Of a DNA stretch of 64,000 nt, positions 9,035-59,607 are shown in pieces; position 1 is the first letter of the stretch; each line of letters begins with the position of its first letter. A program made the translations under genes and the position numbers. Under the pieces are notes generated by a model. It had not been told where the DNA came from. It ran no database searches and saw only the letters and a list, made by a program, of their open reading frames with translations. The DNA comes from CBDFMG01 sp965221205 [NCBI: bacterium] (GTDB lineage: Bacteria; SM23-31): positions 620,001 through 684,000 of the forward strand of contig OZ244870.1 of assembly GCA_965221205.1 (NCBI GenBank), read 5' to 3'.

Positions 9035-9101
9035 GGTTCTCAAATTGCACAGCACGGAAAGTAAAATAACACTTGTAAATGTTAAATGCTTAAAGTAATA
9101 T
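9035..9101 (+). promoter_or_regulatory. Shared extended promoter, copy 1 (drives M24 gene at 9133)
   Basis: -35 TTGTAA at 9073-9078, 17-base spacer, -10 TAATAT at 9096-9101. The upstream box (from GGTTCT at 9035 through CACAGCACGGAAAGTAAAA) is a diverged copy of the consensus described in the findings. Confidence 0.7.
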
Positions 9102-9132
9102 TTATCACCAAAAAGCAATAGAGGAGCAAGTC

Positions 9133-10563
9133 ATGATATCTCGAATATTGGTGTTTTTAATACTTGTGATGTTTACAGTACCTTTTGCCAATTGCCAGGC
9201 TCAGGAAATGGACGACCTGAAGGAATGGAATAATCAGATACGCCGGGAAAAGTTTGACCTCGTTCTACCCCAAGCCATGAAAAAGAACAATATCGATATG
9301 TGGATCCATGTGATGAGAATAGCAATTCCTGATCCCTTTGGTGCAGAAGAACTGGGCAGTACCTCCGGTGTTTTCATCTTCACGGACCGTGGCGGTGATC
9401 GGATTGAACGCGCGGTTCTTGGACGTCGCTGGGGAGCTTCACAGCGTGAAAGGGGAGAGGTTGAGATGTTGGTTGAAAAATATGGAGTTTACGACATAAT
9501 CCACGACCCAGTTTTTGTGCAGCAACCGGTGGTAATCCCGATGACAGAATATGATTACCGATTTAAGGGCCTCAGAGAATTTGTTGAAGCACGTAATCCC
9601 AAACGCATTGCTATAAATTACAGGGAAAACCTGGGAACGTGGGCGACTTCCCCCAGAGCAAATGACGGTATTTCGCATATAGATTACCTCCTCTTAACGA
9701 AAGAGCTCGGTGAAAACTATGCCGACAGGCTGGTCTCGTCTGAATATGTAATGATGGATTACCAAATAACTCCGGTGCCGAGCGAAATCGAACTCCTTAA
9801 GAAAATGCGTCAGGACGAAGTTGAACTTGCAAAGAAAGCCTTTGCTGAAATCGTGCCAGGTGTAACCAGAACTCGCGAGCTGGGTGAAACCGGAAATTAT
9901 CAGGTGGATGTAGTTGTCTTTCGCCGGATGAGTACAGGATTGTCCCAAAGAGGAAGGAGTGCAGGCTGGGAAAACAGCGTGGTCCAGGGAGGCGACGTCG
10001 TTGCAGCACCAAGCCAGGGAATGTTCGCCTATGTGCTCCGTGACGGAGAGACTGAACCGCCTCCGGAAATCCAAAAACTCTGGGCAGAATACCTGAAAAT
10101 CAAAAAGATTCTGGTGGAGACCATTAAGGCTGGTCGTACTCCTCGTGAAATAATCCAAAACTACACCAGGAAATTTGAGGAGGAAGGAATTATTGTCAGG
10201 GATCCCCAATTACATATGGTTCAGCCAAAGAACAATTTTCCTGTTTATGCCATAGGCTATGATCCTGACAATACCCAAATTGCTATCGACTGCCATGGCA
10301 TGGGAAAAGGAGCGCGTGAGAGGAAGCACGATATTTATTTTGGCCCCAGGATTGGTTCTAATGGTCCGGAATGGACTTTAGATATACCACTTTCACCCAA
10401 TCACCACTTTGTTTTAGAATATTTCTTCTATATGCCGTCTCCTACATCCAACGAACGTGAAGACCAGTATTTATTATTTTGGGATCATGAGCAGGCAATT
10501 GCAACCGGACGTGGAGTCAAGTATTTATCTCCACCGCAAAAAGAGCTTTATCTCATTAAATGA
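9133..10563 (+). CDS. Secreted M24-fold protein lacking metal ligands
   Basis: A 476-residue protein with a signal peptide ending near AFANCQAQ. The N-terminal half is the creatinase/prolidase N-terminal domain and the rest has the pita-bread fold sequence pattern. In the canonical relative at 40719-42092 the metal pair is FIDWG...ATDIKRFAYVL. Here the same place reads GGDVVAAPSQGMFAYVL (about residues 287-303), so the D-x10-D pair is gone. A His in DCHGMGKG and a Glu in FVLEYFFY remain, but the last Glu is replaced (LFWDHEQAIATGRG). It is likely not a standard Xaa-Pro metallopeptidase. Creatinase is a known metal-free member of this fold, so a different hydrolase activity or a binding role is possible. 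Start supported by GAGGAGCAAGTC before the ATG. Confidence 0.82.
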   Translation: MISRILVFLILVMFTVPFANCQAQEMDDLKEWNNQIRREKFDLVLPQAMKKNNIDMWIHVMRIAIPDPFGAEELGSTSGVFIFTDRGGDRIERAVLGRRWGASQRERGEVEMLVEKYGVYDIIHDPVFVQQPVVIPMTEYDYRFKGLREFVEARNPKRIAINYRENLGTWATSPRANDGISHIDYLLLTKELGENYADRLVSSEYVMMDYQITPVPSEIELLKKMRQDEVELAKKAFAEIVPGVTRTRELGETGNYQVDVVVFRRMSTGLSQRGRSAGWENSVVQGGDVVAAPSQGMFAYVLRDGETEPPPEIQKLWAEYLKIKKILVETIKAGRTPREIIQNYTRKFEEEGIIVRDPQLHMVQPKNNFPVYAIGYDPDNTQIAIDCHGMGKGARERKHDIYFGPRIGSNGPEWTLDIPLSPNHHFVLEYFFYMPSPTSNEREDQYLLFWDHEQAIATGRGVKYLSPPQKELYLIK

Positions 10564-10605
10564 GTTCCTCCAAACACAATCGTCACTTAATGAAGGAGAC
10601 TCAAT

Positions 10606-11799
10606 TATGTCTACTCGACAAGTTTTATTTGGATTTTTTCTTTGCCGTTGTTGGGCTTCTCAAGTTCAGCAACGGCCAAGGATTTTAGGTCCCTCTGAAA
10701 AAGCTCCTGCATGATCCGCAAAAACAAATTCGACTACGTGCTCCCAAAGGCCATGCGACGCAACAACATCGATATGTGGATCGTCATTGATTCTGGTCGC
10801 GGCACCGATCCGATGATACTCGACTTTGGCATTGAGAGCGCCTATGGTCAGAGCTTTTACCTCTTCTTCGATCGATTGTCTATGATCGCGACCCAAAACG
10901 AATCACTTTGAATTACCTCGATACTCTAATTTGGGGAGGAGCGCGCACCGCAGACGGTCTTTCCTACACGGATTATAAATTTCTCGTGAAGGAATTGGGC
11001 GAAAAGTATTCTGAACGCTTCGTGTCCGCGCAAAATCTCATCGCCGATTTTCACGGCGAGCACGTCGCTGGCGAAATCATCGAGTTCTTCAAGGTCGGTG
11101 ACATAACACGAAAAGGAATTGAACGTGCCTTGTCCAACGAGGTTGTCACGCCCGGTAAGACGACCTACCACGATGTCGTCTGGTGGTTGGAGGAGCAACG
11201 GGAAGCGATGGGTTTGCGCAGAACCTGGGTTTCAAGTGCAGCATTTCCACAAGCACCTAGTTTCAAGGGGTATCAAACCATTATCGTATGGATGGGATAA
11301 GGAACGCGTCATCCAGCGAGGCGATATTCTGTTTATCGATTGGGGACTCAATCGCAACAATATTCTCCACCGATATTAAGCCGTTTCTCCTATGTCCTCA
11401 AAGAAGGGGGAACTGGTGGCGCCGCCCGGTGTCCTTAAGGCTTTTGGAGAGGCCAAGAAAGTCCGCGAGATCATTCGAAAAACGTTCGCTCGGGAAGAAT
11501 TGGCCGGGATCAATTAGGTGATCTCAAACAAATCATTCGAGACGCCGGCTATGTCTACACGGAAACAGAACGTGCCAGTGACGTTCCGGGTATCGAGGTG
11601 CATGTCGGGATGCATGGCATGGGCAACGTCGCCCACGAAGTAGGGGCCGGGATCACCATGGGTGAAAAGGGCAAATACGAAGTCATGCCTAACGCCTTCC
11701 TTTTCCTGGAATTCAGACCGGCGGACGAATGGAACGGAAAAAAGATCACTGTCGCCATCGAAGAGAACGTGCTGGTCACGGAACGCGGCATCGAAGGAA
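10606..11799 (+). pseudogene. M24 peptidase pseudogene, decayed duplicate of 40719-42092
   Basis: The leader (ATGTCTACTCGACAAG) and most of the body closely match the intact gene on the opposite strand at 40719-42092, but several frameshifts break it into pieces (10711, 10908, 11119, 11598). About 130 bases between the equivalents of FYLFYD and RSIVYDRD are missing, with short sequence similarity (TTCGAT/CGATC) at the joint. The 3' end is also cut: the gene stops matching after VTERGIE and joins directly to the promoter of the next M24 fragment. The canonical metal residues are still recognisable in pieces (FIDWGLNRNN). Ribosome binding site GAAGGAGACTC precedes the ATG. Confidence 0.85.
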
Positions 11800-11802
11800 T
11801 AC

Positions 11803-11831
11803 TTGTAACAGTAAATTGCTTAACGTAATAT
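11803..11831 (+). promoter_or_regulatory. Shared promoter core, copy 2 (before the M24 fragment at 11864)
   Basis: -35 TTGTAA at 11803-11808, 17-base spacer, -10 TAATAT at 11826-11831. The upstream box is missing because the fused end of the preceding pseudogene lies there, so the core was retained while the box was deleted. Confidence 0.65.
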
Positions 11832-11863
11832 TTATCACCAAAAGTTAAACGAGGAGCAAGGCC

Positions 11864-12051
11864 GTGATAACTCTAATTATGGTATTTTTAATAGTTTTGA
11901 TGTTCTCCATACCTAATGCCATAGCACAGCGGGGAGGAGAATCCTTTAACCTATTTCCGCAGCATACGATAGAGACCGACAGGGAAGTGCTCCGTCTTAT
12001 ACGAAACGAAAAACTTGACCTTATTCTACCGGGAGCCATGCGCGACAATAT
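11864..12051 (+). pseudogene. N-terminal fragment of an M24-fold paralog
   Basis: Starts with a signal peptide (LIMVFLIVLMFSIPNAIAQ) and continues REVLRLIRNEKLDLILPGAM, matching the paralogs at 39241-40636 and 18870-20282. After GAMRDN the sequence switches abruptly to a piece of an unrelated nuclease gene (see 12052-12276). GAGGAGCAAGGCC precedes the start. About 60 residues of M24 sequence remain. Confidence 0.75.
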
Positions 12052-12276
12052 AATGAAGAATAAATCGAAATTTCGTTTCGATAATCCTTAACAGTTCGTT
12101 TATAATTACTGTGATTTTTTACAACATCCAGGATTTGTTTAAGAGCTTTTGACAAGTCTTTCCGCTTATTAAAAAGAAAAATTGCTGTTTTCGTGTCTCT
12201 CCAGCATGTGTATCCAAGCAATTGATCAATTTTTTTAATAGAATATTTCTCTCCATCCCAAAACGCACACTCCGCT
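12052..12276 (-). pseudogene. Displaced fragment of the PD-(D/E)XK-like gene of 46148-47407
   Basis: About 225 bases match 46206-46439 closely, in the same strand orientation, with a few substitutions and small indels. It covers the C-terminal coding part (ECAFWDGEKYSI...IDQLLGYTCWRDTKTAIFLF). It sits between two M24 fragments that point in opposite directions. Neither end shows an insertion-sequence terminus; short matches at both ends suggest joining by microhomology. Confidence 0.8.
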
Positions 12277-12628
12277 TCGGGTCACGCTCTGCAACAAATT
12301 AAGTTATTTCGTCGTAGACGGAAAAGTCATGAGTGTTATAATCATAGTTGGTAATTGCTCGGGAAAGTTCGCGAGAGCCATAAATATTATATAACCGAAG
12401 GTCGATCAAAATTCCCGAAACATTGGATCTTGATCTCCGGCACGGGTTACATGAATCCACATGTCCACATTATTGTCGTGCATTGCTCTCTGCAGAATAA
12501 GGTCAATCTTTTCTTATAAGATCAAGGACTTCCCCGCCGGTCTTTGCCGTATGTACACCAGGTTGTACATTGGCAACAGATACGGTAAACATTGCAGAAA
12601 TGAAAAATAGCATTGTTCTAGTTATCAT
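12277..12628 (-). pseudogene. Inverted N-terminal fragment of an M24-fold paralog
   Basis: On the minus strand the ATG at 12628 begins ITRTMLFFISAMFTVSVANV, then QPGVHTAKTGGEVLDLIRK, closely related to the start of 18870-20282. Stops and frameshifts follow, but MHDNNVDMWIHVTRAGDQDP, YDYNTHDFSVYDEIT and FVAERDPK are still readable. The match ends at 12277, where the nuclease fragment begins. A matching promoter copy lies upstream at 12796-12824. Confidence 0.78.
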
Positions 12629-12795
12629 TACGTGCTCCTCTATTGATTGCTTGTGGCTTTTTAGAAAACATTTATTAGCTGAAGGCTTCGAGTGTGGATA
12701 AACTTTGTGACGTCATGATTTTCATAACTGTCTGATCATAAACCATATACAACCAGGATGTGCGGCGTCACAACTTTAAGGGCACTAGTGTTTAG

Positions 12796-12850
12796 ATAGT
12801 AAGAAATGCATCTAGCCTTTGCAAGAGTTAATTATTATCCTCCTTTGAAA
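12796..12850 (-). promoter_or_regulatory. Shared extended promoter, copy 3 (for the inverted M24 fragment)
   Basis: On the minus strand: -35 TTGCAA at 12824-12819, 17-base spacer, -10 TACTAT at 12801-12796. The upstream part (AAAGGAGGATAATAATTAAC) is a weak version of the shared box. It still faces the dead gene at 12628. Confidence 0.55.
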
Positions 12851-13331
12851 GAGATTAATAGGGATTATAAGAATTATAATGCCAAATTAACACTTGGTCC
12901 TTTTTCTCGAAGAGCATTATAAGTGTACCCTGCATAAAGTTTACAGCAAGCAGGAGCTCGTCAAATGAAACCCGTTGATGACTATTCATGCATATTGTCC
13001 ATAAGTTTATTAGTCATTTCTAGTTATTGATTAAAGATAAAATATTAGTACTTTTTAGTAATATGAAACTACTTTTATATTGTTTTTTTGCTTATATTCC
13101 CTTATAGTAGAGCGATTTAATATGAAAATTATTATGTCATTTTTTAATCATTTTCATATCTATCCAATTAAAAGTTTCCAGATATTATACAATGCAATGA
13201 CTAACCAGTCAGGCTTTTTCATGGTTAGCGGACTTCAGCCGAAAAACAAGAAATTCTATATAAATCTCTTTCATTGGATTGATATGAGGAATACCAGAAA
13301 AAATCCATAGGTTTGCTATCAACTAGAGGAT
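12851..13331. other. Intergenic region before the sulfatase
   Basis: About 480 AT-rich bases. A frame at 13080-13310 has no recognisable content. The sulfatase has AACTAGAGGATATG just upstream of its start. I see no shared-promoter copy facing the sulfatase. Confidence 0.4.
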
Positions 13332-15191
13332 ATGAAAATGAGCGTTATGAAGCGACGTGATTGTTTAAAAGCTCTTGGCGCGAGTGCCGCTTTATTGGTA
13401 GTGCCGGACCACATGAAAGATATGAAATTGTTCTCGGCTGATAAAGAGACTCTCAGGCCGCCAAATGTAATTTTGATTATTACCGATGATCAAGGTTACG
13501 GAGATTTAGCGTGTCATGGCAATTCGATAATTCAAACGCCAGCTATTGATCGCCTCTTCACCGAAAGTATAAGACTGAAAAACTATCATGTATCACCGGA
13601 ATGCTCACCTACGCGTGCAAGTTTGCTTACAGGGCGCTATAGCAACAGAACAGGAGTATGGCATACAGTAATGGGACGGTCTCTCCTGCGAAAAGATGAA
13701 ATGACCATGGCGGATGTATTTCAGTCGAACGGTTTCAAAACCGGGATATTTGGCAAGTGGCACCTTGGAGATAATTACCCGTTCCGACCGCAGGACCGAG
13801 GTTTTGATGAAGTAGTAATCAATGGAGGAGGAGGCGTAGGAAATACGCCCGACTACTGGGATAATGATTATTTTGATGATACTTATTGGCGCAACGGAAA
13901 GCCGGAGAAATTCCATGGTTACTGCACAGATATTTGGTTTGATGAGGCCATGAAATTTGTTGAAACCAATAAGAATGATCCATTCTTCTGTTATTTGACT
14001 ACAAATGCTCCACACGATCCATTTCATATCGAAGATAAATACAGTACGCCATATCTCGATCAAGGTGTTCCGGACTACCGTGCGCAATTTTACGGAATGA
14101 TAACGAATATAGATGAAAACATTGCCAAACTGGAGTCGAAATTAAAAAAACTTGGCATTAGAGACAACACGATTTTTATATTCATGACCGATAACGGGAC
14201 TTCAGGAGGAGTCAGCACCGATGAGAACAGATTCCCGACAGGAGGTTTCAACGCGGGTATGCGTGGGCAAAAAGGTAGTGTATATGACGGCGGACATCGG
14301 GTACCGTGCTTTATTCGCTGGCCGGATGGAATTGGTGGTGGTGGCAGTGATGTCAATCGCCTGACAGCGCACATCGACATTCTTCCCACCCTGATCGAAT
14401 TGTGCGAGTTGAAAACAACGGAGGAGGTACAGTTTGACGGAACGAGTATAACGCCATTGTTAAAAGATGCGGTAACGAACTGGCCGGACCGAATAATTAT
14501 TACCGATAGACAGCGAATTGAGCATCCTGAAAAATGGAGAAGAAACGTTACAATGACCGACCAATGGCGTCTCGTCAACGGTATGGAGCTTTATGATATG
14601 AATATGGACCCCGGCCAAAAAAATGATGTTGCCGAACAATATCCTGATGTTGTTGCAAAATTACGCAATGCATATGAGAGATGGTGGAACGATGTCTCAG
14701 AACGATTTGACGAATTTTGCGAAATAATCATTGGTTCCGACAAAGAAAATCCCGTCCGACTGACAAGTCATGATCTTCATGACGGTCAGGAAGGTAGAAC
14801 AGTGGTCTGGGATCAGCCTCTCGTCCGTGAGGCTCTTCAGTCTAGTGGATTCTGGGCAATAGACGTAGCACAAACAGGTACATATGAATTTGTATTGAGG
14901 CGATGGCCTGAGGAAATCGATAAGCCAGTAAATGCCACTATCCCTGAAGGTGGACCAATTCCCGGGGGTATACCTTATCCCAAAGGTAGAGCCATTAATG
15001 TGACCAATGCCCGGATCAAGATTGCAGAAGTGGAAAAGACCAAATCGGTCTCTGAAAATGAGACTGCCGTACTTTTCCGGCTTCAGCTCCAAGCTGGCAA
15101 AACACGACTGCAAACCTGGTTTACCGATGATAAAGGACAATCTCGCAGCGCATACTATGTTTATATCAGATACCTTTCACAGGGAGAGTAA
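13332..15191 (+). CDS. Secreted sulfatase (arylsulfatase A family)
   Basis: A 619-residue protein with a twin-arginine-like start (MKRRDCLKALGASAALLVV). The core begins RPPNVILIITDDQGYGD, giving the metal-binding aspartates. CSPTRASLLTGRY is the sulfatase C-x-P-x-R motif whose Cys is converted to formylglycine. GIFGKWHLGD and the later TDNGTSGG are the other conserved active-site segments. It hydrolyses sulfate esters, probably of polysaccharides, outside the cytoplasm. The C-terminal 130 residues (after about 490) form an additional beta-rich domain found in some of these sulfatases. The protein needs a formylglycine-generating or anaerobic maturase enzyme, which is not in this window. Confidence 0.92.
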   Translation: MKMSVMKRRDCLKALGASAALLVVPDHMKDMKLFSADKETLRPPNVILIITDDQGYGDLACHGNSIIQTPAIDRLFTESIRLKNYHVSPECSPTRASLLTGRYSNRTGVWHTVMGRSLLRKDEMTMADVFQSNGFKTGIFGKWHLGDNYPFRPQDRGFDEVVINGGGGVGNTPDYWDNDYFDDTYWRNGKPEKFHGYCTDIWFDEAMKFVETNKNDPFFCYLTTNAPHDPFHIEDKYSTPYLDQGVPDYRAQFYGMITNIDENIAKLESKLKKLGIRDNTIFIFMTDNGTSGGVSTDENRFPTGGFNAGMRGQKGSVYDGGHRVPCFIRWPDGIGGGGSDVNRLTAHIDILPTLIELCELKTTEEVQFDGTSITPLLKDAVTNWPDRIIITDRQRIEHPEKWRRNVTMTDQWRLVNGMELYDMNMDPGQKNDVAEQYPDVVAKLRNAYERWWNDVSERFDEFCEIIIGSDKENPVRLTSHDLHDGQEGRTVVWDQPLVREALQSSGFWAIDVAQTGTYEFVLRRWPEEIDKPVNATIPEGGPIPGGIPYPKGRAINVTNARIKIAEVEKTKSVSENETAVLFRLQLQAGKTRLQTWFTDDKGQSRSAYYVYIRYLSQGE

Positions 15192-15294
15192 AACAACTTT
15201 TTATAGTTTTTATTATTGCCCCTGTTTTCCCCGTTTCAACGTTATACTACAAAAATCATTGTGACTAAAAAATCAATGCCAGTTTATCACTAAA

Positions 15295-16236
15295 TCATTT
15301 TGTCTGAGTTAATTCAGTCTGTTTCAAAAACGTCTCCGGTATTGATTCTATCTCACGAATTTCAATATTACGGTAGAAGACTTCACTACCTTCCGATTGT
15401 AATTCAATCTTCCCACGTGTTAGAGGCAGATAATTTTCATCATCTACCCAGTTTTTTGCATTCTCCAAAACCATAACCACATGACTATTGACGATATGAA
15501 GGCTCTTGTCCCCCAAACAAATCAACTCGACGGTATTCCATTCTCCATGAGGTTTTTCATAGTCGAGAATTCTTCGACATCTGTTCGGTTCAAATTGGTC
15601 TCCGCTTCTAAACTGCCTGTATTCTGCGGTTGGATTATAAATCCACTGGGTATCACCATAATCATTATCTCCAGAACGATCTTCCTTGGTTTCTGATGAT
15701 CTGATATCCATACTAACTCCAGCCAGAGGATGAAAGTCCCCAACATCACCTTCCTGAACCTGCAATTCTGGTGCTTTCATCCAAGCATTATAAAATTGGC
15801 CGTATGGTTCCTGAGCATGATAATGTATTCCACTATCCCTTCTTCTGTTTAATCGTGGTTCATGCTTTTTTTCACCCCATTTAAACTCTATTTTCAAATG
15901 GTAATTTTCAAATTCCTCTTTTGTGCTTATCCCACCAAATATCTCGCCTGATATATGAAGTATGGGTGCTTCATTCGATTCCTCAACCGTAAAGACATTT
16001 AAAGGGTCCTTATTTAAGCCGATCGGTGTCCCATCTTTAGGATACCCGGTCAGATTAACACTTGCATGTGGAACGCCTACAAAAATATTCCATTTGCTTA
16101 AATCCTTGTCAAGTAGTGTTATCCACTTATTTTCTGCATCTATTTGTGGTTTTTCCAAACCACAACCGACTAAGGTTCCGCATATGGAAACTATAAAGAC
16201 AATTAGCATAGAATAAACCAACCTGAATGTAAACAT
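15295..16236 (-). CDS. DUF1080 (3-keto-disaccharide hydrolase-like) lipoprotein
   Basis: A 313-residue protein with a lipoprotein signal (VFIVSICGTLVGCG). The domain begins with WITLLDKDLSKWNIFVG and includes FENYHLKIEFKWGEKKH, RDSGIHYHAQ, and ends with KIELQSEGSEVFYRNIEIREI. These are standard DUF1080 features, a concanavalin-like fold that includes 3-keto-glycoside hydrolases. It faces the sulfatase convergently. A shared extended promoter lies upstream at 16330-16402. With the Gfo/Idh/MocA oxidoreductases in the window it fits a 3-keto-sugar degradation scheme; that link is inference. Confidence 0.88.
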   Translation of the reverse strand: MFTFRLVYSMLIVFIVSICGTLVGCGLEKPQIDAENKWITLLDKDLSKWNIFVGVPHASVNLTGYPKDGTPIGLNKDPLNVFTVEESNEAPILHISGEIFGGISTKEEFENYHLKIEFKWGEKKHEPRLNRRRDSGIHYHAQEPYGQFYNAWMKAPELQVQEGDVGDFHPLAGVSMDIRSSETKEDRSGDNDYGDTQWIYNPTAEYRQFRSGDQFEPNRCRRILDYEKPHGEWNTVELICLGDKSLHIVNSHVVMVLENAKNWVDDENYLPLTRGKIELQSEGSEVFYRNIEIREIESIPETFLKQTELTQTK

Positions 16237-16329
16237 AATTGTAATTCTCCTAGTTTGGTCAATATAATAACGACTTATTAATAAAGTGCTCTTTGTATAT
16301 CACCATAATATTTCATACTAATTGAGTTA

Positions 16330-16402
16330 AAATCAAGAGACACATTTTGCAATTCCAATTGTTTTCTGCTCCCAGGGCACGTATGATTTGCGAACCTTTA
16401 AC
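16330..16402 (-). promoter_or_regulatory. Shared extended promoter, copy 4 (drives DUF1080 gene)
   Basis: Minus strand: upstream box starts GGTTCGCAAATCATACGTG and ends CTGGGAGCAGAAAAC; -35 TTGGAA at 16358-16353; 17-base spacer; -10 TGATTT at 16335-16330. Confidence 0.7.
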
Positions 16403-16456
16403 AGTAAGTCTAAATCTATCCAAAATGTTCCGGATCCTTACAATTCACTCTCAATT

Positions 16457-16790
16457 TTACCAGCCATTATAACTCGACGCGAAAATTCCTTTAGAACTTA
16501 AATAAAATATTGAAAGTCTTCTCGTATATGTTTGGTGATCTACCATGAATGGATATGTATGAAATCTTGTTTTCATTATTATTGTTGCTATACCATAATT
16601 TGATTCGGCTAAATGTGTCATATGTTCGCCAAATTCACGAGCCTCTTTATCAAGTTTGTGGTGATAATCACTTTCCGGCATTGCCTCAGTAACTTCCAGT
16701 GTAAGCTCTGTCATTGTATCCCATGCTTTAGTTATTGCAGCTTTTGTTATAAGCTGTGTTGAGGCATGACCTGCCGTTAATAGAACAAAA
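16457..16790 (-). pseudogene. DinB-like protein fragment
   Basis: The minus-strand frame reads AWDTMTELTLEVTEAMPESD, then KEAREFGEHMTHLAESNYGI. This resembles the start of DinB/DUF664 four-helix proteins (FGEQLAHIAxxN, with the metal His in the MxHL element). The frame then degenerates (SIFYLSSKGIFASSY) and stops at 16457. The usual remaining hundred residues and further His ligands are absent. A degenerate upstream box (GTTCACAAATCGTACATC, 17033-17062) lies upstream in the right orientation, but I cannot find a clear -35/-10 pair with it. Confidence 0.45.
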
Positions 16791-17111
16791 TCATGTTAAA
16801 AGACATCTAATGATGACGTATGTATTCATATTATTCTCTCATTTCTATAATAGAATTAATGATGATCTCTTTTGATGTTTAATCCCATATTAACATTTGA
16901 ATATGAAAAGTACAAATGAGTCTTTTTTGATCATAAGACCACAGGGAAGAGGCAATCCCGATAAGTCTATCTGTAACTATTAAATAATTACGGATTGAAT
17001 AAAGATTGTCTTAGAGACGAGATTTTAATTTGATAAAACACTCTTCGGGATGTACGATTTGTGAACTTTTTCAATGGTCATCTGCTATCATTCAACAGCT
17101 CAAACGCCGCA

Positions 17112-18650
17112 TTACCACGGTAACGGTGCAATTCGGGGAAGTTTTTCATCACGCATTGCAGCATGATACGCAAATGTTGCCAAGACGACAGCAGCTTGCG
17201 TTAAACCCTCAGGATAGAGGCGTTCATACACATCCATATTTGTGTGAGCGTTCCAGTCATCGATCTCTTTTCTATCATGGTTAAAATAAAAGCCAATCAA
17301 ACCAACTTCTTTGTATGCTTCATGTGCAGATCCTGTGGTGAAAAGATGTGACATCCCAAGGTTACGCAGCGGTTTTATCCACTCGGTAATTATCCCTCGG
17401 ACAGCTTCATTTCCCATGATGGAAACACCCCGTATACTGCCGGGACCGATATCAACATTAAAATACGCAGAAAGATTATTATAATCTTTTTTGTACTCTT
17501 TTGTTTCCAGGTCAGCAAAGTTTTTACGGACATGGCTCCGGTTACCAATTAATCCTATTTCGTGACCGCCCCAGAGACCAACACGAATAGTCCTCCGGGG
17601 CTTAACCCCGATCGCCTTAAGAATACGTACCGCTTCCATGGCAGTAACCGATCCGGCAGCGTTATCTATGGCGCCGGTTCCGACATAATCAGACTGGAGA
17701 TGACCGCCTACTATAACTATTTCATGCGCCAGATCTGTACCCGGAATCTCAGCAATGACGTTATGATCGACGGACTCTCCTCTGTAAACGGTCGTCCTGA
17801 TCTCGATTTCCATCTCGACAGGAATATCCTTTTCGAGGATTCGCATTATCCGGTTATAATGTTCCACTGCCAAGACCAACTCCGTAGGCTGGAGGGGCTT
17901 ATCTTCCCACGGCCTCTCTATTCCATTGTAATTTCCGGGAGAAACTGAGCCATAATAATGCTGTTCATCTGGGTGTACAATAGCCACAGCACCTTCTGCA
18001 AACACAAAATCAATAATGTGCTTTTTCAGTTCACTGAGATCACGTCTGCGACGCTCTTCTGAGACTCGAGGACCAATGGCAATGGGGATTTTCTCCATCT
18101 CATCGAGCCGCTCGTCTGTCCATGTCAGCGGATTTGCTTCAAAATGAGGCGAGATTTCCTGTTCCGGTTTTATGAATATAATACGATCTCTTAATTTTCC
18201 CCGGTATTGTTCCAGATCAGCTTCCGAGGAAATTTCATCAAAATTCATGGAGAAAACGTCCGCCCGGACCTTTCCATCAGTACCGGTCGTCCACGGTGCG
18301 GGATACCCGATGACTCGCATATATTGGGGGGTCATCATATGGATAGACGTGTATGCATGCCCCCAACCGTTACCGAACTCATACGGTTCAAGCTTAGCAT
18401 TCGTGAGACCATACTCTATGAGTCGGCCTCTTGCCCATTCTGCCGCTGCACGGTATGAAGGTGTTTTCTCATTCCGCGGCCCAAATACATCTGTCAACCA
18501 GCTGGCATTCTCCATTACTTCAGAATTTTCAAAAGCTTCTTCAGTGAGCTCCTGCACAACACCCCAGTATACCGGTTCCTGTGCAGATACGGCAGGTAAT
18601 AATATAAACACCAATAATAGACTTAGTATAAAGGTATAATGAACTTTCAT
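17112..18650 (-). CDS. Secreted M28-family protein with altered catalytic residues
   Basis: A 512-residue protein with a signal peptide (FILSLLLVFILLPAVSAQ), full-length relative of the M28 gene at 5415. The zinc-site region reads GGHLQSDYVGTGAIDNAAG, so the conserved HxD is H317-L-Q319. The catalytic Glu pair reads WGGHEIG, giving H363-E364. The Asp in YFNVDIG and the last His in AHTNMDVYERL remain. The general-base Glu is thus replaced by His and the supporting Asp by Gln. Family knowledge predicts severe loss of normal aminopeptidase activity; a binding role or altered chemistry is possible. It is divergently arranged with the M24 gene at 18870, each with its own copy of the shared promoter. 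Confidence 0.85.
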   Translation of the reverse strand: MKVHYTFILSLLLVFILLPAVSAQEPVYWGVVQELTEEAFENSEVMENASWLTDVFGPRNEKTPSYRAAAEWARGRLIEYGLTNAKLEPYEFGNGWGHAYTSIHMMTPQYMRVIGYPAPWTTGTDGKVRADVFSMNFDEISSEADLEQYRGKLRDRIIFIKPEQEISPHFEANPLTWTDERLDEMEKIPIAIGPRVSEERRRRDLSELKKHIIDFVFAEGAVAIVHPDEQHYYGSVSPGNYNGIERPWEDKPLQPTELVLAVEHYNRIMRILEKDIPVEMEIEIRTTVYRGESVDHNVIAEIPGTDLAHEIVIVGGHLQSDYVGTGAIDNAAGSVTAMEAVRILKAIGVKPRRTIRVGLWGGHEIGLIGNRSHVRKNFADLETKEYKKDYNNLSAYFNVDIGPGSIRGVSIMGNEAVRGIITEWIKPLRNLGMSHLFTTGSAHEAYKEVGLIGFYFNHDRKEIDDWNAHTNMDVYERLYPEGLTQAAVVLATFAYHAAMRDEKLPRIAPLPW

Positions 18651-18707
18651 TAATATGACTCCTGGTTAAGTTTACGCTGTTAGGACAGTGCGGACACTTT
18701 GTGTTCA

Positions 18708-18752
18708 ATAATAAGGTAAGTAATTTGTTTTTACAAGTGTTTTCCTAATCCA
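18708..18752 (-). promoter_or_regulatory. Shared promoter, copy 5 (drives M28 gene at 17112-18650)
   Basis: Minus strand: -35 TTGTAA at 18736-18731, 17-base spacer, -10 TATTAT at 18713-18708. It is preceded by GGATTAGGAAAACAC, so only the proximal part of the upstream box is kept. It is back to back with copy 6. Confidence 0.65.
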
Positions 18753-18763
18753 TTGAGCATTTA

Positions 18764-18829
18764 GGTTTACAAATCGTACAGCCCGGGAAGTAGAAAACAC
18801 TTGTAAAAGTAATATACTTAACGTAATAT
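18764..18829 (+). promoter_or_regulatory. Shared extended promoter, copy 6 (drives M24 gene at 18870)
   Basis: Upstream box GGTTTACAAATCGTACAG followed by CCCGGGAAGTAGAAAAC; -35 TTGTAA at 18801-18806; 17-base spacer; -10 TAATAT at 18824-18829. This is one of the best-conserved copies. Confidence 0.75.
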
Positions 18830-18869
18830 TTATCACCTTATCACCTTCTAATCAAAAGAGGAGAATGTT

Positions 18870-20282: not shown

Positions 20283-20290
20283 AAATATAG

Positions 20291-20353
20291 GTTTACAAAT
20301 CACAGCTCAAGGAGTAGAAAACACTTGTGAAAGCAATATCTATCTCTTATTAT
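20291..20353 (+). promoter_or_regulatory. Shared extended promoter, copy 7 (before the GH51-Gfo/Idh unit)
   Basis: Upstream box GTTTACAAATCACAGCTC then AAGGAGTAGAAAACAC; -35 TTGTGA at 20325-20330; 17-base spacer; -10 TATTAT at 20348-20353. It precedes the GH51 gene at 20615 by about 260 bases, leaving a long leader. Confidence 0.65.
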
Positions 20354-20364
20354 TCACCACAAAA

Positions 20365-20382
20365 TGTCCAACTTGTTCTGAC
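20365..20382 (+). repeat. Possible insertion-sequence terminus, copy A
   Basis: TGTCCAACTTGTTCTGAC. Nearly the same word occurs at 30391-30406 and, inverted, at 32187-32199. No transposase is adjacent here, so it may be a scar between the promoter and the GH51 gene. Confidence 0.35.
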
Positions 20383-20614
20383 AACGTACACTTTTTTAAC
20401 ATAATATTCATGTAGATAATCTGTTATGATCAATTGATGTTATGATAGAGAAGAATTATTGTCAGTTACTCAAGATTTTAACAAAACCTGTATGACATTA
20501 CTGTAGAATTACTGTAGAATTCGTTGAATTTTCAAACGTTTTTGTCAGAGTGGAATTTCATGTTTATTTGGTTATCTATAAATCGAAAACTAAGATTATA
20601 GTAACGAGGGTAAT

Positions 20615-22145: not shown

Positions 22146-22247
22146 ACGAAAGAATGCATGAATGGATACAGGGTATATTGGACAAAGGAATGTAATATAC
22201 TAAGAATTATGAATATTTATTACTAACCTTTTCAAGGAGAATTCAAT

Positions 22248-23642: not shown

Positions 23643-23647
23643 TATAT

Positions 23648-23800: not shown

Positions 23801-23804
23801 ATTT

Positions 23805-25037: not shown

Positions 25038-25068
25038 GGAGATTGTCTCCCAAGCATTTTAATTGAAA

Positions 25069-25130
25069 ATAGCAAGGTGTGAAATTTACTTTTAATAGCA
25101 TTTCATACACCATGGGAGGCACGATTTGCG
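25069..25130 (-). promoter_or_regulatory. Shared extended promoter, copy 8 (drives cupin gene)
   Basis: Minus strand: box GATTCGCAAATCGTGCCT then CCCATGGTGTATGAAAT; -35 TATTAA at 25097-25092; 17-base spacer; -10 TGCTAT at 25074-25069. The -35 is the weakest of the set. Confidence 0.6.
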
Positions 25131-25245
25131 AATCTTTAATAATAAGTTTAAAATTTGTCCGCAATGGCTAAAACTGAAATACACAATCGATAAAAGTTAT
25201 AAAGCAAGAGATTATTTTCATGCTTCTGTTTACTGTTGAATATCA

Positions 25246-26214: not shown

Positions 26215-26227
26215 CTTTGTTCCTTTA

Positions 26228-28823: not shown

Positions 28824-28988
28824 TTTCCTCTACATCCAGAACATTTCCCGTATTCACTCAGACTGGTTATACAGGAATATGTGATTACAACGGACCTTTT
28901 CTCTTCTCTGTTTTTAAATAATGCGGAAAAACTGAAGTAAGTGGTCGCATATCGTCAAAACAAGCGCTATTTTTCCAGCAACGCATAA

Positions 28989-30110: not shown

Positions 30111-30138
30111 GGATGTTCCCTACATGGTTATAGACCCC

Positions 30139-37041: not shown

Positions 37042-37377
37042 AAAATGATCAAAGCAAGTGTTTTTTACTTCACCAGATTCTTTCAATTCTTGAACAACAG
37101 GGTAATGTCGAAAAGTGCCTTAGAGTCAATATGATGCTTACAGATTACCATGGCGAGAGGTTTGAGAAGGTTGGGCTATCTATATTGTTACACCTGAAAA
37201 ATATTGGAAAGATTCACACTTTATTGACCATATCAAAGTTAATAATGTTGAACCTTTATGGTGCTGGGCGTTTGTTGTCGAGGATCCCAAAGAACTAATA
37301 AATCGGACGCACGAATCACGAATGCCGACTAAAGACATAGAAAATGTTCTCAGCTGGGGGAATCAGCAAGCACATAG
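37042..37377 (+). repeat. Inverted displaced copy of the hamA-hamB junction
   Basis: About 335 bases correspond to the reverse complement of 33608-33941 with about a dozen differences, including different single-base indels. It carries the hamA end (KCFLLHQILSILEQQGNVEK, EPLWCWAFVVEDPKELINRT) and hamB start (MPTKDIENVLSWGNQQAHS). It is inserted between GAGTGGTA and CATAGTAAAG, which are adjacent at 45240-45256 in the uninterrupted version. CATAGTA is also present at the hamB end of the copy, so microhomology joined the right side. Confidence 0.85.
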
Positions 37378-37438
37378 TAAAGAATTCATATAGCTTTTGC
37401 AAGTATTATCCACTCCTCTGGCTGTACTAATTGCGAAC
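37374..37438 (-). promoter_or_regulatory. Shared extended promoter, copy 9, with insertion at its -10
   Basis: Minus strand: box GGTTCGCAATTAGTACAG then CCAGAGGAGTGGATAATAC; -35 TTGCAA at 37402-37397; 17-base spacer; -10 TACTAT at 37379-37374. The displaced ham fragment starts at this -10, so transcription from here would run antisense through it toward the chimeric methyltransferase frame. Confidence 0.7.
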
Positions 37439-37554
37439 CTATGCAAATAGGGCATGAGTAGGTAAAGAAGAATATTATATTTGGAGTATTACGTTGGTCA
37501 TACCAATTAAATTCGACTAAGTTTGCATTAGATTAACATAGACACTTTATTAAC

Positions 37555-38976: not shown

Positions 38977-39167
38977 TTAAAATACCCTTTCTTTCATGTA
39001 TAGATGCTGGAATAACTTTTACCTGGATTTCCTCATATAACATTGTATATAATTTACCCCCATCTTTCGCAAGTTCCCGAGATTACTTAAGATTTACTAT
39101 GGTGATGGGTGACAGTCTCATGTGTCCTTACTTTACGTCGTCAGATCATTTGGACATGCTGAGTTAA

Positions 39168-39233
39168 ATAGTAAAGGATGTAATTTGCATTTACAAGCAT
39201 TTTCTACTCCCCGGGCTGTACGATTTACGAAGC
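39168..39233 (-). promoter_or_regulatory. Shared extended promoter, copy 10 (drives Gfo/Idh gene at 37555-38976)
   Basis: Minus strand: box CTTCGTAAATCGTACAGC then CCGGGGAGTAGAAAATGC; -35 TTGTAA at 39196-39191; 17-base spacer; -10 TACTAT at 39173-39168. It begins right at the stop of the M24 gene at 39241. Confidence 0.75.
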
Positions 39234-39240
39234 TTTATGC

Positions 39241-40636: not shown

Positions 40637-40667
40637 GACGCGCTCCTCTTTTGATTATTGATGATAA

Positions 40668-40718
40668 ATATTACATTAAGCAATTTACTGTTACACGTGT
40701 TCCCTTCTCGTCAGGCTG
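40668..40718 (-). promoter_or_regulatory. Shared promoter, copy 11 (drives M24 gene at 39241-40636)
   Basis: Minus strand: -35 GTGTAA at 40696-40691, 17-base spacer, -10 TAATAT at 40673-40668. Upstream CAGCCTGACGAGAAGGGAAC is a diverged box that abuts the stop codon of the preceding M24 gene. Confidence 0.62.
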
Positions 40719-42092
40719 TTATCGAATCAGGAGCACCTTATCTTGCGGCGGGTACAACCATTCGATGCCGCGTTCCGTAACCAGCACGTTTTCTTCGATG
40801 GCGACAGTGATTTTTTTTCCGTTCCATTCGTCCGCCGGTACGTAAATTCTGAATTCCAGAGAAAGGAAGGCGTTAGGCATGACTTCGTATTTTCCCTTTT
40901 CACCCATGGTGACCCCGGCCCCCACATCGTGGGCGCGGTTGCCCATGCCATGCATCCCGATATGCACCTCGATACCCGGGTCGTCACTGGCGCGTTCCAC
41001 TTCTGTATAGACATAGCCGGCGTCTCGAATGATTTGTTTGAGATCATCTAATTGCTCCCGGCCGGTTCTTCCCGAGCGAACGTTTTTTCGAATGATCTCG
41101 CGGACTTTCTTGGCCTCTCCAAAAGCCTTAAGGACACCGGGCGGCGCCACCAGTTCTCCTTCTTTGAGGACATAGGCGAAACGCTTGATATCAGTGGCGA
41201 AATTGTTGCGATTGAGTCCCCAATCAATAAACATGACATCGCCTCGCTGGATGACACGTTCCTTATCCCATCCATCGATAATGGTTTGATACCCCTTGAA
41301 ATCAGGTGATTGTGGAAATGCTACACTTGGAACCCAGGTTCTGCGCAAACCCATCGCTTTACGGTGCTCCTCCAACCACCAGACGACATCGTGGTAGGTC
41401 GTCTTACCGGGCGTGATAACCTCGTTGGACAAGGCACGTTCAATTCCTTTTCGTGTGATTTCAGCAACCTTGGAGAATTCGATGATTTCGCCGGCGACGT
41501 GCTCGCCGTGAAAATCAGCGATGAGATTTTGCGCAGACACGAAGCGTTCGGCATACTTTTCGCCCAATTCCTCTTCGAGAAACCTGTAATCCGAGTAGGA
41601 AAGACCGTCTGCTGTGCGCGCTCCTCTCCGCATTGTGGGATCGAGATAATTCAAAGCGATTCGTTTCGGGTCGCGATCATAGACAATTGATCGAAGTAAA
41701 TCTCCACCTCTAGATAGGTGATCTACCTTTCCCGGGAAATCGTCGTAGACACCGCACATTTCAGCCAGATCAGAACTGCCGGGGCCACCGAGGGAATACC
41801 TTTCGATGCGGTCATCACCCCCATCGTAGAAGAGGTAAAAGCCCTGACCGTAGGCGCTCTCAATGCCAAAGTCGAGCATCATCGGATCGGTGCCGCGACC
41901 AGAATCAATGACGATCCACATATCGATATTGTTGCGTCGCATGGCCTTTGGGAGCACGTAGTCGAATTTGTTTTTGCGGATCATGCAGGAGCTTTCCCAG
42001 AGGGACCTAAAATCCTGGGCCGTTGCTGAACTTGAGAAGCCCAACAACAACGGCAAAGAAAAGATCGCAAATAAAACTTGTCGAGTAGACAT
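40719..42092 (-). CDS. Secreted M24 metallopeptidase (Xaa-Pro aminopeptidase-like), canonical ligands
   Basis: A 457-residue protein with a signal peptide (LFAIFSLPLLLGFSSSATAQ). Ligands expected of M24 are present: D290 in FIDWGLNRNN, D301 in ATDIKRFAYVL, His in IGMHGMGN, Glu in SLEFRIYVP and Glu in AIEENVLVTERGIEWL. It probably binds two metal ions and cleaves Xaa-Pro or dipeptide substrates outside the cytoplasm. It is the only paralog here with the full set in an intact frame. A decayed near-duplicate lies at 10606-11799 on the other strand, in the same order relative to a second M24 gene. GAAGGAGACTC precedes the start. Confidence 0.88.
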   Translation of the reverse strand: MSTRQVLFAIFSLPLLLGFSSSATAQDFRSLWESSCMIRKNKFDYVLPKAMRRNNIDMWIVIDSGRGTDPMMLDFGIESAYGQGFYLFYDGGDDRIERYSLGGPGSSDLAEMCGVYDDFPGKVDHLSRGGDLLRSIVYDRDPKRIALNYLDPTMRRGARTADGLSYSDYRFLEEELGEKYAERFVSAQNLIADFHGEHVAGEIIEFSKVAEITRKGIERALSNEVITPGKTTYHDVVWWLEEHRKAMGLRRTWVPSVAFPQSPDFKGYQTIIDGWDKERVIQRGDVMFIDWGLNRNNFATDIKRFAYVLKEGELVAPPGVLKAFGEAKKVREIIRKNVRSGRTGREQLDDLKQIIRDAGYVYTEVERASDDPGIEVHIGMHGMGNRAHDVGAGVTMGEKGKYEVMPNAFLSLEFRIYVPADEWNGKKITVAIEENVLVTERGIEWLYPPQDKVLLIR

Positions 42093-42227
42093 AATTGAGT
42101 CTCCTTCATTAAGTATATATTCCCCATACCAATTCTATAAATGAGATAGATTGGGATGGTGTTGATATATGACGCTTTTTTAAGATGTGATATACTTGGT
42201 CAGAACTTATTGGGAATTACACTATAA

Positions 42228-42288
42228 ATAGTAAGGCATGTAATTTGTTTATACAAGTATTTTTTGATCCTCTGGTTGTACGATTACT
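42228..42288 (-). promoter_or_regulatory. Shared extended promoter, copy 12 (drives M24 gene at 40719-42092)
   Basis: Minus strand: box TAATCGTACAACCAGAGGAT then CAAAAAATAC; -35 TTGTAT at 42256-42251; 17-base spacer; -10 TACTAT at 42233-42228. Confidence 0.7.
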
Positions 42289-42588
42289 TACCAGAATACG
42301 AAAAAGGCAGCAGAGGTCGTTTAGATAGATGTTTTCTGTAGACATTTCTATCTGTGTGGCAGGGATTTTCTTGTTAAACAGGTATCAATGTACTGTATGT
42401 AGACAGTATGTCTATCTGCTTCCTAAGCGTGAGTTTGGAGCAATGTCACTTTTCTGTACATTTGGGAAGTGACACAATCATGTTTTTCCAATTTAAGAAG
42501 GGGCATTGGGGTAAGAATTATATGTTGAAGGCTCCTTGGGACGCATGGGTATCGCGGTAGATATATCAAACCTCTCTACTTATCCACA
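42289..42588. other. Intergenic, no gene seen
   Basis: About 300 bases between convergent-side ends. It contains several short related words (TAGATAGATG, TCTATCTG, TGTCTATCTG) that could form weak hairpins. No open frame of note. Confidence 0.4.
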
Positions 42589-45227: not shown

Positions 45228-45248
45228 GATTTGATTATTGAGTGGTAC

Positions 45249-45314
45249 ATAGTAAAGAATTCATATAGCTTTTGCAAGTAGTATCTACTCCTCGGGCTAT
45301 ACGATATGCGAACC
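45249..45314 (-). promoter_or_regulatory. Shared extended promoter, copy 13 (drives amidohydrolase tail-CehA unit)
   Basis: Minus strand: box GGTTCGCATATCGTATAGC then CCGAGGAGTAGATACTAC; -35 TTGCAA at 45277-45272; 17-base spacer; -10 TACTAT at 45254-45249. It is the uninterrupted relative of copy 9. Confidence 0.75.
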
Positions 45315-45414
45315 TTTTAGCAAATTAAAAGTATCTGCTTATTTAAGAAATAGAGAACCTCGAATACTCGTTCAATTGCTATTACCACAGTCACGAAGAA
45401 CAGAGTTTAAGATC

Positions 45415-58027: not shown

Positions 58028-58109
58028 AGGGTTATCTCCTTATAACTAATTTTAGTAATATCATACATTAACTACATAGACAACAGTGAAATCAATTATT
58101 ACATGGTAT

Positions 58110-59255
58110 TCAGTTTTTTAACACCTCGCGGAAGTACCGGAGCCAGTTTAATCCTAAAATCTTCTCGATATCTTCGAATCGATAGCCACGTTTGTCCAAT
58201 ATACGGGCAACAATTTTGTAACGGTCAGGCGTATCCAATTCAGGGATCCAGGGCGGCCAACGGACTTCATAGGATGGCTTAAATTGTATCAGACGAGGCT
58301 CGTACCAATTTTCACGCGTCGCATAGGATGAAATCCCTTGAATTGCAAAATCTGCTGCCAATCCTACGTGGTCTATTCCGCCTCTTTTCACCGCATGGTC
58401 GATATGATCAACGTATGTTTCAATAGTTGTCTCCCCACCGGGATCCGGTCCTATCATGTAGCCAAGCCCAATAATTCCCATCACCCCACCTTTATCGGCC
58501 ATGGCTCTAATCTGCTCGTCGGTCTTCGCCCTAGGATGTTGAGGATACAGGGTCTCACACATTGTATGGGTAAAGCATGCTCCTGGATTACTGAATTGAA
58601 TTCCATCTAAGGTTGTTTGACGGCCACAGTGGGAGAGATCTACTATGATACCCAATTGGTTCATCCGTTCGACTGCAGCAACACCAAATTCAGACAGCCC
58701 GGCGTTCGTCCGCTCAGTGCAGCCATCTCCAAGAAGGTTTCGTGAGTTGTACGTCAACTGAATACATCGAGTACCAGCCTGGTACAAAATATCAAAATTG
58801 TCGACGGAATTTTCGATCATCGTTGCATTTTGAAAACCAAACATCACGGCCATCTTACCCTCCTGCTTCGCTCGTTCGAAATCCACGGCAGAGGCAGCCA
58901 TTATGAGCTTGTCAGTATTATCTTGTATACGCTGACCCCAGTCAGTCAACGCTTTTAGAGCTGCTTCCAGATTTTCCGAAGGCAATGAAGTTTGAATTCC
59001 AGTATAACCTGACTGCTCTACAGCCTCGTATGACTTTTCATTCCAATCACTTGTGATAACCAAAGCATCTATCACGATTGCGTTTTTGTAAATCTGATCA
59101 ATTTGGTTCGAATTCTGAGGATTTCGCACTTTAGGTTGCAAGGGGATAGCTGTAGAATTATTATGAACTGTGTCTAAATTAACATCTGCTGGTAGACCCT
59201 GCAATAATACACTAAGGGGCATTATTTTCAGAAAGTCTCTGCGTTTTAAATCCAC
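58110..59255 (-). CDS. M19 (membrane dipeptidase) family protein with altered metal site
   Basis: A 381-residue protein with a Tat-like start (KRRDFLKIMPLSVLLQG). The second half is clearly M19: VERMNQLGIIVDLSHCGRQT, CFTHTMCETLYPQHPRAKTD and GGIDHVGLAADF. The two His ligands (SHC, THT) and the later Asp are present. The usual N-terminal HxD (in DGHNDL) reads VIDALVITSDW, and the bridging Glu of GxEGA reads GFQNA. So part of the binuclear zinc site is missing. It may belong to an uncharacterised M19 subfamily with this pattern. It is encoded upstream of the RidA gene on the same strand. Confidence 0.83.
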   Translation of the reverse strand: MDLKRRDFLKIMPLSVLLQGLPADVNLDTVHNNSTAIPLQPKVRNPQNSNQIDQIYKNAIVIDALVITSDWNEKSYEAVEQSGYTGIQTSLPSENLEAALKALTDWGQRIQDNTDKLIMAASAVDFERAKQEGKMAVMFGFQNATMIENSVDNFDILYQAGTRCIQLTYNSRNLLGDGCTERTNAGLSEFGVAAVERMNQLGIIVDLSHCGRQTTLDGIQFSNPGACFTHTMCETLYPQHPRAKTDEQIRAMADKGGVMGIIGLGYMIGPDPGGETTIETYVDHIDHAVKRGGIDHVGLAADFAIQGISSYATRENWYEPRLIQFKPSYEVRWPPWIPELDTPDRYKIVARILDKRGYRFEDIEKILGLNWLRYFREVLKN

Positions 59256-59578
59256 ACCTTTCTCCTTTTATTTTTTGATGTACAGCATGACTTCCTGCTC
59301 CAAACAAATTTGCTATATCAGAATAATATAAACAAAATATATGTACATTACAAATTTTGACATTGAAATTTACCGACATGAGTCAGGATGTGTCATAAAT
59401 TATCTCATTTGTTGTAATTATTCGAGTGTATTAACACATCAATGTGATAACCACGCTAATTTTTACCAGGTCTATCAAGGTAATTGTAACTTAATCAGCA
59501 GCGCATAATCATTAAGGTCGCAGTTTCGAGATTTCAAGAGTTTAACTTCGACTTACTTTCCACTTTAGTAGAAAGTAG
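59256..59578. other. Divergent intergenic region
   Basis: AT-rich DNA between the M19 gene and the propeller gene. No gene seen. The right end carries the shared promoter copy 14. Confidence 0.5.
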
Positions 59579-59607
59579 TTGTAAAAGCAAAATATATCTT
59601 TTATTTT
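59540..59607 (+). promoter_or_regulatory. Shared extended promoter, copy 14 (drives propeller gene at 59709)
   Basis: -35 TTGTAA at 59579-59584, 17-base spacer, -10 TATTTT at 59602-59607. The box upstream (CTTTCCACTTTAGTAGAAAG) is the most diverged copy, sharing the GTAGAAA part. Confidence 0.55.

What the first reader, a model, noticed from the sequence alone, without database searches (positions are those of the whole stretch)
9035..59607. One extended promoter repeated 14 times with an invariant 17-base spacer
In front of 14 transcription units (starts near 9035, 11803, 12796, 16330, 18708, 18764, 20291, 25069, 37374, 39168, 40668, 42228, 45249, 59540) the same arrangement recurs in gene orientation: a box close to GGTTCGCAAATCGTACAG plus CCCGGGGAGTAGAAAAC, then TTGTAA-like -35, exactly 17 bases, then TAATAT/TACTAT-like -10. 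It drives M24, M28, DUF1080, GH51, Gfo/Idh, cupin, CehA-like and propeller genes. I find none before hamAB, the nuclease/methyltransferase genes or the type I island. The box upstream of -35 is far longer than a normal UP element, so it may be an operator or activator site defining a regulon for secreted/catabolic genes. Spreading of a promoter with duplicated genes explains the M24 copies but not the unrelated genes.
Basis: seen in the sequence. Interest (0 to 1): 0.85.

Follow-up and report, generated by a model that had tools for sequence, protein, structure and literature searches.

The report
Repeated upstream-box promoter, probable regulon
Ten genes or gene remnants in this bacterial stretch are preceded by copies of one 70-base control region, a long conserved box joined to an ordinary promoter, most likely the docking site of an unknown regulator for a group of mainly exported-looking enzymes, spread in part by copying of one enzyme gene family.

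Summary
The repeat is real. A 69-70 bp module (box GGTTCGCAAATCGTACAGCCCGRGGAGTAGAAAAYAC, then TTGYAA-N17-TAnTAT) occurs complete at nine places and half at a tenth. All 16 point at the next gene. Held out of the scoring matrix, 10 of 12 boxes as they stand (three from other genomes) beat everything in 2 Mb of simulated sequence; the other two have small indels and do so only once aligned. Identity among copies before different genes is high from box to -10 and falls off on both sides. The box also occurs twice in a contig resembling the window's DNA, binned in another genome, and once, without promoter, behind an M24 gene in an Aminicenantes genome. No terminal repeats, target duplications, attC cores or RNA covariation were found. 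Best reading: a sigma70-type promoter with a regulator site over about -72 to -21, spread with M24 peptidase genes and by promoter capture. The 17-base spacer is ordinary. Regulator, signal and genome-wide copy number are unknown; the window's genome is not held. 'Secreted regulon' is only suggestive.

The parts
9035..9104 (+). complete element (box + TTGTAA-N17-TAATAT) before M24 a (9133-10563); one extra base in the box
16327..16396 (-). complete element with one extra base in the box and weak hexamers, before the DUF1080 / 3-keto-disaccharide hydrolase gene (15295-16236)
18764..18832 (+). complete element before M24 b (18870-20282); highest-scoring copy
18704..18753 (-). promoter part only (TTGTAA-N17-TATTAT), divergent, before M28 (17112-18650); shares the gap with the 18764 box
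20290..20356 (+). complete element lacking two box bases, 8 bases after the M24 b stop, before the GH51-like gene split into two ORFs (20615-22145)
25066..25134 (-). complete element with poor hexamers before gene 23805-25037 (no family found)
37371..37439 (-). complete element before a type IIG restriction-enzyme fragment; an inverted hamAB fragment (37043-37379) lies directly behind the -10
39165..39233 (-). complete element, 8 bases after the M24 c stop, before a Gfo/Idh-type oxidoreductase (37555-38976)
40665..40733 (-). promoter with only the 3' half of the box (from about 40721); the 5' half is M24 d coding end; before M24 c
42225..42293 (-). complete element with diverged box start before M24 d (40719-42092)
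45246..45314 (-). complete element before an amidohydrolase C-terminal fragment (45227-45018) and the CehA/McbA-type gene (42589-45021)
11795..11837 (+). promoter part only, fused to the end of an M24 pseudogene; precedes M24 fragments
12793..12830 (-). promoter part only (TTGCAA-N17-TACTAT) before an M24 fragment (12648 downward)
59567..59609 (+). promoter part only (TTGTAA-N17-TATTTT) before the 1131-aa secreted-type protein (59709-63104)
17040..17068 (-). degenerate box without a promoter, behind the M28 stop

Best explanation
A family of sigma70-type promoters that carry one shared regulator site. Counting the -10 as -12 to -7, the conserved stretch runs from about -72 to -21: the box (-72 to -37), the -35 hexamer, and the -35-side half of the spacer; the other half of the spacer is freer and the -10 is conserved again. 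I infer that a sequence-specific protein binds just upstream of and over the -35 and activates (or represses) initiation, so that the genes behind the copies (M24 and M28 peptidases, DUF1080, GH51-like, Gfo/Idh, CehA-like and others) form a regulon. The set grew in two ways: by duplication of M24 genes with their promoter, and by capture of the promoter by other genes through duplication and rearrangement. Shown: sequence, position, orientation, bounds and recurrence outside the window. Inferred: protein binding, direction of control, transcription start and signal.
For: Held-out matrices separate 12 of 12 boxes from 2 Mb of simulated sequence when indels are aligned and 10 of 12 as raw letters with all M24-linked boxes left out together. 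A matrix from four boxes before non-M24 genes scores four boxes before M24 genes at 20-43 bits, and the reverse at 18-35. For six copies (two of them before M24 a and d, which are only distantly alike) mean pairwise identity is 0.27-0.38 upstream of the box, 0.56-0.68 in it, 0.73 in the -35, 0.64 then 0.40 in the two spacer halves, 0.77 in the -10, 0.67 for the next three bases and 0.26-0.35 beyond. 16 of 16 places are oriented with the next gene, 14 of 16 do not overlap coding sequence, and none lies at the three convergent junctions, one of which has no gap (my gene list). Two boxes precede M28 and M24 genes in G001:C315 (E 7.6e-6 and 9.1e-6 per genome), the second with a recognisable -10 and a leader like the window's M24 leaders by eye; one lies behind an M24 gene in G017 (E 1.5e-5); 25 genomes were searched.
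Against: No transcription, binding or regulator data. The G017 box and the G001 M28 box have no good -10 at 17 bases (by eye), the G001 M24 copy has a poor -35, and 17040-17068 is a box without promoter. The box has only weak dyad symmetry (p 0.038 for one of five half-lengths, uncorrected) and no direct repeats, so it does not look like a classic dimer site. In the 20290/39233 pair the element is no more conserved than the M24 coding ends (70% and 71%), which descent alone could give. Of 120 pairs of upstream regions only 21 reach an alignment score of 44 (null maximum 45). A plain sigma70 scan finds no excess of promoters at 36000-46000 (19 found, 19.7 expected), though it does at 8000-27000 (75 against 50.1), and it lists few of these sites because the hexamers are off consensus.
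Confidence: 0.58

Rival explanations
1. Shared descent only: one M24 control region was copied with duplicated genes and captured by neighbours; the box is inherited sequence without a dedicated regulator, and the promoters are constitutive.
For: M24 promoters 9035, 11766, 18764 and 40733 are alike well into the leader; M24 gene copies are 91-96% alike in places; 45314 and 37439 are duplicates including the leader; the 18773 and 20290 regions are alike to 106 bases past the box register; element and coding are equally conserved in one pair.
Against: Among six copies both flanks are at 0.26-0.38 identity while the box stays at 0.56-0.68, and the box is recognisable in another genome (G017).
Confidence: 0.22
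2. A dispersed mobile repeat (MITE- or REP-like, or a recombination site bounding gene cassettes) that happens to carry a promoter.
For: Copies recur between successive single genes at 45-37 kb in cassette-like order; some boxes lack a promoter; the hamAB fragment is joined exactly at a -10 with the shared bases TACTATGT.
Against: No terminal inverted repeats (best 7 of 20 on the consensus), end repeats of 3-6 bases in 9 copies against a null 95% point of 6, no fixed attC-type core, all oriented with genes, no match of the consensus in the plasmid collection, and no true match of three exact patterns in viral contigs.
Confidence: 0.1
3. The ordinary strong promoter class of this organism: the -35-side conservation is a general extended -35 and the box binds RNA polymerase alpha or a nucleoid protein, with no regulon.
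For: Five promoter-only copies share the -35 and spacer start; similar promoters without box occur in G484 and G483.
Against: The box is not A/T-rich as an UP element would be (recalled) and centres on CCCGRGG; model R1 finds no copy at E<0.001 before the ribose transporter, type I restriction or M19 genes.
Confidence: 0.07
4. A structured RNA or riboswitch in the leader.
For: Consensus arms TTnGCAA and TTGYAAA flank the box and pair in 71% of cells against 37-50% when slid.
Against: No covariation above shuffles (103 of 500 reach the observed score), no consensus fold, no Rfam match at E up to 0.1, and one arm overlaps the -35, upstream of the expected start.
Confidence: 0.03

Closest known systems
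sigma70 promoters with an activator or operator site next to or over the -35 (class I/II activation, recalled)
   Same: Hexamers, mostly 17-base spacer, conserved block upstream of and over the -35, shared by several transcription units.
   Different: The block is about 50 bp without clear dyad or direct repeat; I recognise no known regulator motif in it (no motif library was available); no binding or expression data.
Promoter propagation / putative mobile promoters (Matus-Garcia et al. 2012; seen only as a reference in passages of PMC9208149)
   Same: Homologous promoter sequence before unrelated genes within one genome.
   Different: Here copies are mostly 25-45% diverged and bounded by functional limits, and no insertion-sequence ends are found; the paper itself is not held, so its criteria were not applied.
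Horizontal regulatory transfer (Oren et al. 2014; described in passages of PMC5890482)
   Same: Intergenic control regions replaced apart from the gene.
   Different: As described there it concerns replacement of an intergenic region at a locus; here copies are spread within one genome.
M24 peptidase arrays of Aminicenantes (L066, L074)
   Same: Same M24 family, five genes per locus.
   Different: There the genes are in tandem and two of the four spacers in each locus are only 25-31 bases, so probably partly operons; in the window most M24 genes have their own promoter.

Membership tests
sigma70-type promoter | -35 and -10 hexamers about 17 bases apart | tested here: met
   17 strictly best at 11 of the 14 listed sites, tied at 2, not supported at 1 (25134). 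TTGYAA / TAnTAT match TTGACA / TATAAT (recalled) at 4-5 of 6.
sigma70-type promoter | transcription starts 6-8 bases after the -10 | not testable with these tools
   no RNA data
regulon with shared operator | same site before several unrelated genes, position fixed relative to the promoter | tested here: met
   nine complete copies in register, three of them with a one- or two-base indel in the box; matrices from unrelated genes cross-predict
regulon with shared operator | site conserved at orthologous promoters in relatives | tested here: inconclusive
   present before M28 and M24 in G001:C315, whose composition resembles the window; not seen before the M28 genes of G021 or G364
regulon with shared operator | a cognate regulator binds it | not testable with these tools
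   no binding data; window genome not held
MITE / insertion-sequence derivative | terminal inverted repeats and target duplications | tested here: not met
   best 7 of 20 for the ends; direct repeats 3-6 bases in 9 copies, null 95% point 6
integron attC cassette site | core GTTRRRY / RYYYAAC at fixed positions (recalled) | tested here: not met
   one stray GTTRRRY and two stray RYYYAAC in 9 copies
structured RNA element | covarying base pairs | tested here: not met
   no Rfam match
mobile promoter | near-identical promoter copies before non-homologous genes | tested here: inconclusive
   homologous copies before non-homologous genes, but much diverged except the 45314/37439 pair (69 of 77)

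The most novel reading that the evidence does not exclude
A long (about 50 bp) non-palindromic site over the -35, read by an undescribed type of regulator, serves as a portable control cassette: it broke ancestral M24 peptidase operons into singly controlled genes and was then captured by unrelated exported-enzyme genes, building a genome-wide scavenging regulon in an uncultured lineage without a transposase.
Probability: 0.15. Interest if true: 0.7.

Novelty: new member of a known kind. Interest (0 to 1): 0.42.

Why it matters
If true, the box gives a handle on gene control in a lineage without a held genome: a 35-base query that would list the regulon once a genome is available, and a site for pulling out the regulator. 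The mixture of gene duplication and promoter capture within 64 kb would also be a compact case for studying how bacterial regulons grow.

Tried and rejected
Whole-genome counting was impossible: no genome is held for the window. Exact 23-base box pattern: no match in genome contigs or viral contigs. A 17-base pattern found one viral contig, where it lies inside a phage gene and I take it as chance. Weak R1 matches in G006, L090 and L107 lie inside ORFs. G013 looked like a third outside genome and was used to train R2, so its R2 E-values are circular; with R1 it had E 0.039 per genome in a search of 25 genomes, held out it scores 13.7, and 16.2 with the window-only matrix, no better than other matches at 15.7-16.1, of which L090 and L158 lie inside ORFs and L152 and L153 were not examined; I dropped it. 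RNA hairpin, MITE, attC: rejected. My second structure test was placed one column off and is not used. The first held-out test used rows in which I had aligned small indels, and for most boxes left out only the box itself; the stricter repeat loses 16396 and 20290. Lineage: the M28 gene is closest to Aminicenantia genomes (72% in G364), but the ribose transporter ATPase is 33-51% alike in the 19 of 34 genomes with a match, so the lineage stays open. Genome searches with the models: 25, 53, 142, 39, 341, 297 and 40 genomes, overlapping sets; only the top candidates of each genome were scored, and itself warns that an empty answer shows nothing. Box and intact downstream gene seem to go together, but numbers are too small to claim.
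Full report
Observation. The listed places were read and aligned. The unit is a box, GGTTCGCAAATCGTACAGCCCGRGGAGTAGAAAAYAC, followed in register by TTGYAA, 17 bases, TAnTAT. A sequence-only model of ten copies (R1) finds 16 places in the window at E below 0.001 with filters off: nine complete, one (40733 -) with half a box, five with the promoter part only (11795 +, 18753 -, 2901 +, 59567 +, 12830 -), and one degenerate box alone (17068 -). Three of the nine have a one- or two-base indel in the box. A spacer of 17 is strictly the best fit at 11 of the 14, tied at two, and not supported at 25134; it is the normal sigma70 distance (recalled) and not remarkable in itself.

Chance. Because the model was built from the copies it finds, I held boxes out. 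With indels aligned, and paralogues left out for five of them, all 12 boxes tested (nine of the window, two of G001, one of G017) score 15.8-49.9 against a highest value of 8.7-14.4 in 2 Mb of first-order simulated sequence. In a stricter repeat with raw letters, no gaps, and all seven boxes before or behind M24 genes left out together, 10 of 12 score 15.8-46.3 against a simulated maximum of 9.5-12.1 and a rest-of-window maximum of 6.9-9.7; 16396 (-5.7) and 20290 (4.6) fail because of their indels. Matrices from four boxes before M24 genes predict four before other genes, and the reverse. BLAST of the window against itself joins upstream regions of unrelated genes without any model.

Bounds. 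Of 120 pairs of upstream regions, 21 reach a local score of 44 (null of about 300 random pairs: 95% point 23, maximum 45). Four pairs before unrelated genes align from 3-7 bases before the box to positions 66-76, that is, to the -10 or a few bases on (16396/39233, 25134/39233, 37439/39233, 39233/45314). Others are shorter or shifted: 18764/45314 covers -1 to 52, 39233/42293 8 to 69, 42293/2870 28 to 94, 18773/20290 15 to 106. The M24 promoters 9035, 11766, 18764 and 40733 are alike well beyond the -10, as expected for copied genes. The identity profile of six copies (9035, 16396, 25134, 39233, 42293, 45314) is 0.27-0.38 upstream, 0.56-0.68 in the box, 0.73 in the -35, 0.64 in the -35-side spacer half, 0.40 in the other half, 0.77 in the -10, 0.67 for three more bases and 0.26-0.35 beyond. 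This is the shape of a control region under constraint, with a protein footprint over the box, the -35 and the start of the spacer.

Position. On a gene list that I made, 16 of 16 places point at the next gene; 14 are within 330 bases of it, 2870 and 17067 are not; 14 of 16 do not overlap coding sequence (40733 and 11766 run into an M24 end); none lies at the three convergent junctions, one of which has no gap. The genes behind complete boxes are M24 a, b and d, DUF1080, a GH51-like gene split into two ORFs, a Gfo/Idh enzyme, a CehA/McbA-type gene, one gene with no family, and a broken restriction enzyme (M24 a by alignment). By eye most have export signals, but so do several genes without the element, so I do not claim enrichment.

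Outside the window. In 25 genomes that hold M24 relatives, R1 finds two copies in one 3.9-kb contig of G001, before an M28 gene and an M24 gene (E 7.6e-6 and 9.1e-6), and one in G017 (E 1.5e-5). The G001 contig resembles the window in tetranucleotide use more than its own genome (0.85 against 0.74), as does L070 of the same genome (0.86 against 0.78). Eight other pieces of that genome reach 0.61-0.81 with the window and 0.72-0.89 with their own genome, and 5-kb pieces of the window reach 0.55-0.82 with the rest of it, so mis-binning from a relative of the window's organism is likely, not proved. The G017 contig fits its own genome (0.93 against 0.68). The G017 box begins about two bases after an M24 stop and just before a GH3 gene; a -10 at 17 bases would fall inside that gene if it starts at the ATG at 3848, as its signal-like N-terminus suggests. 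In near relatives by M28 (G021, G364, G010, G014) no box was found (only top candidates are scored). G013 was dropped as chance level.

How it spread. M24 matches occur seven times in the window counting fragments, and several copies carry or abut the element. The 45314 and 37439 copies share promoter, leader, a start codon and about 20 codons of an amidohydrolase C-terminal fragment (PF01979), ahead of a CehA-like gene in one place and fused to a restriction-enzyme fragment in the other. In the second, some 330 bases of an inverted hamAB fragment lie exactly behind the -10, with TACTATGT shared at the joint; that could also be an assembly error. These are examples of promoter capture by duplication.

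Verdict. Most likely a regulated sigma70-type promoter family with an unknown regulator (0.58), grown by duplication and capture; descent without a regulator is the main rival (0.22). Mobile-repeat, cassette-site and RNA readings have tested features against them. In print I searched for mobile promoters, regulatory rewiring, conserved intergenic promoters and Aminicenantes promoters (listings only, and passages of two papers) and saw nothing that describes this box; the library lacks most subscription papers.

Noticed in passing
37043-37379 (+) and 33614-33942: A 330-base inverted copy of a hamA-end/hamB-start fragment, 95.6% identical, inserted exactly behind the -10 of the 37439 element, with 8 shared bases at the joint; could be real or an assembly error.
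   Followed up: partly
45018-45227 (-) and 36958-37022 (-): A C-terminal fragment of an amidohydrolase (PF01979) starting at its own internal Met stands behind two copies of the element; one copy is fused in frame to a type IIG restriction-enzyme fragment.
   Followed up: partly
10585-12648: M24 pseudogene and fragments on both strands, 91-96% identical to parts of 40719-42114: recent copying and decay.
   Followed up: partly
32475-34421 and 46148-47407: Hachiman HamA/HamB-like genes (HamB covers only about a third of its profile) and a PDC-S54 candidate defence protein.
   Followed up: no
28824-32475: A 3.65-kb stretch, 35% G+C, longest open frame 166 codons, no Rfam match.
   Followed up: no
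496-1509: A nearly full-profile serpin (E 8e-97) in a bacterial genome.
   Followed up: no
L086 (G001:C315) and L070: Contigs binned in a 'Verrucomicrobia' MAG whose composition fits the window better; possibly mis-binned pieces of a relative.
   Followed up: partly
L066, L074: Aminicenantes loci with five tandem M24 peptidase matches each, two of the four spacers only 25-31 bases.
   Followed up: no
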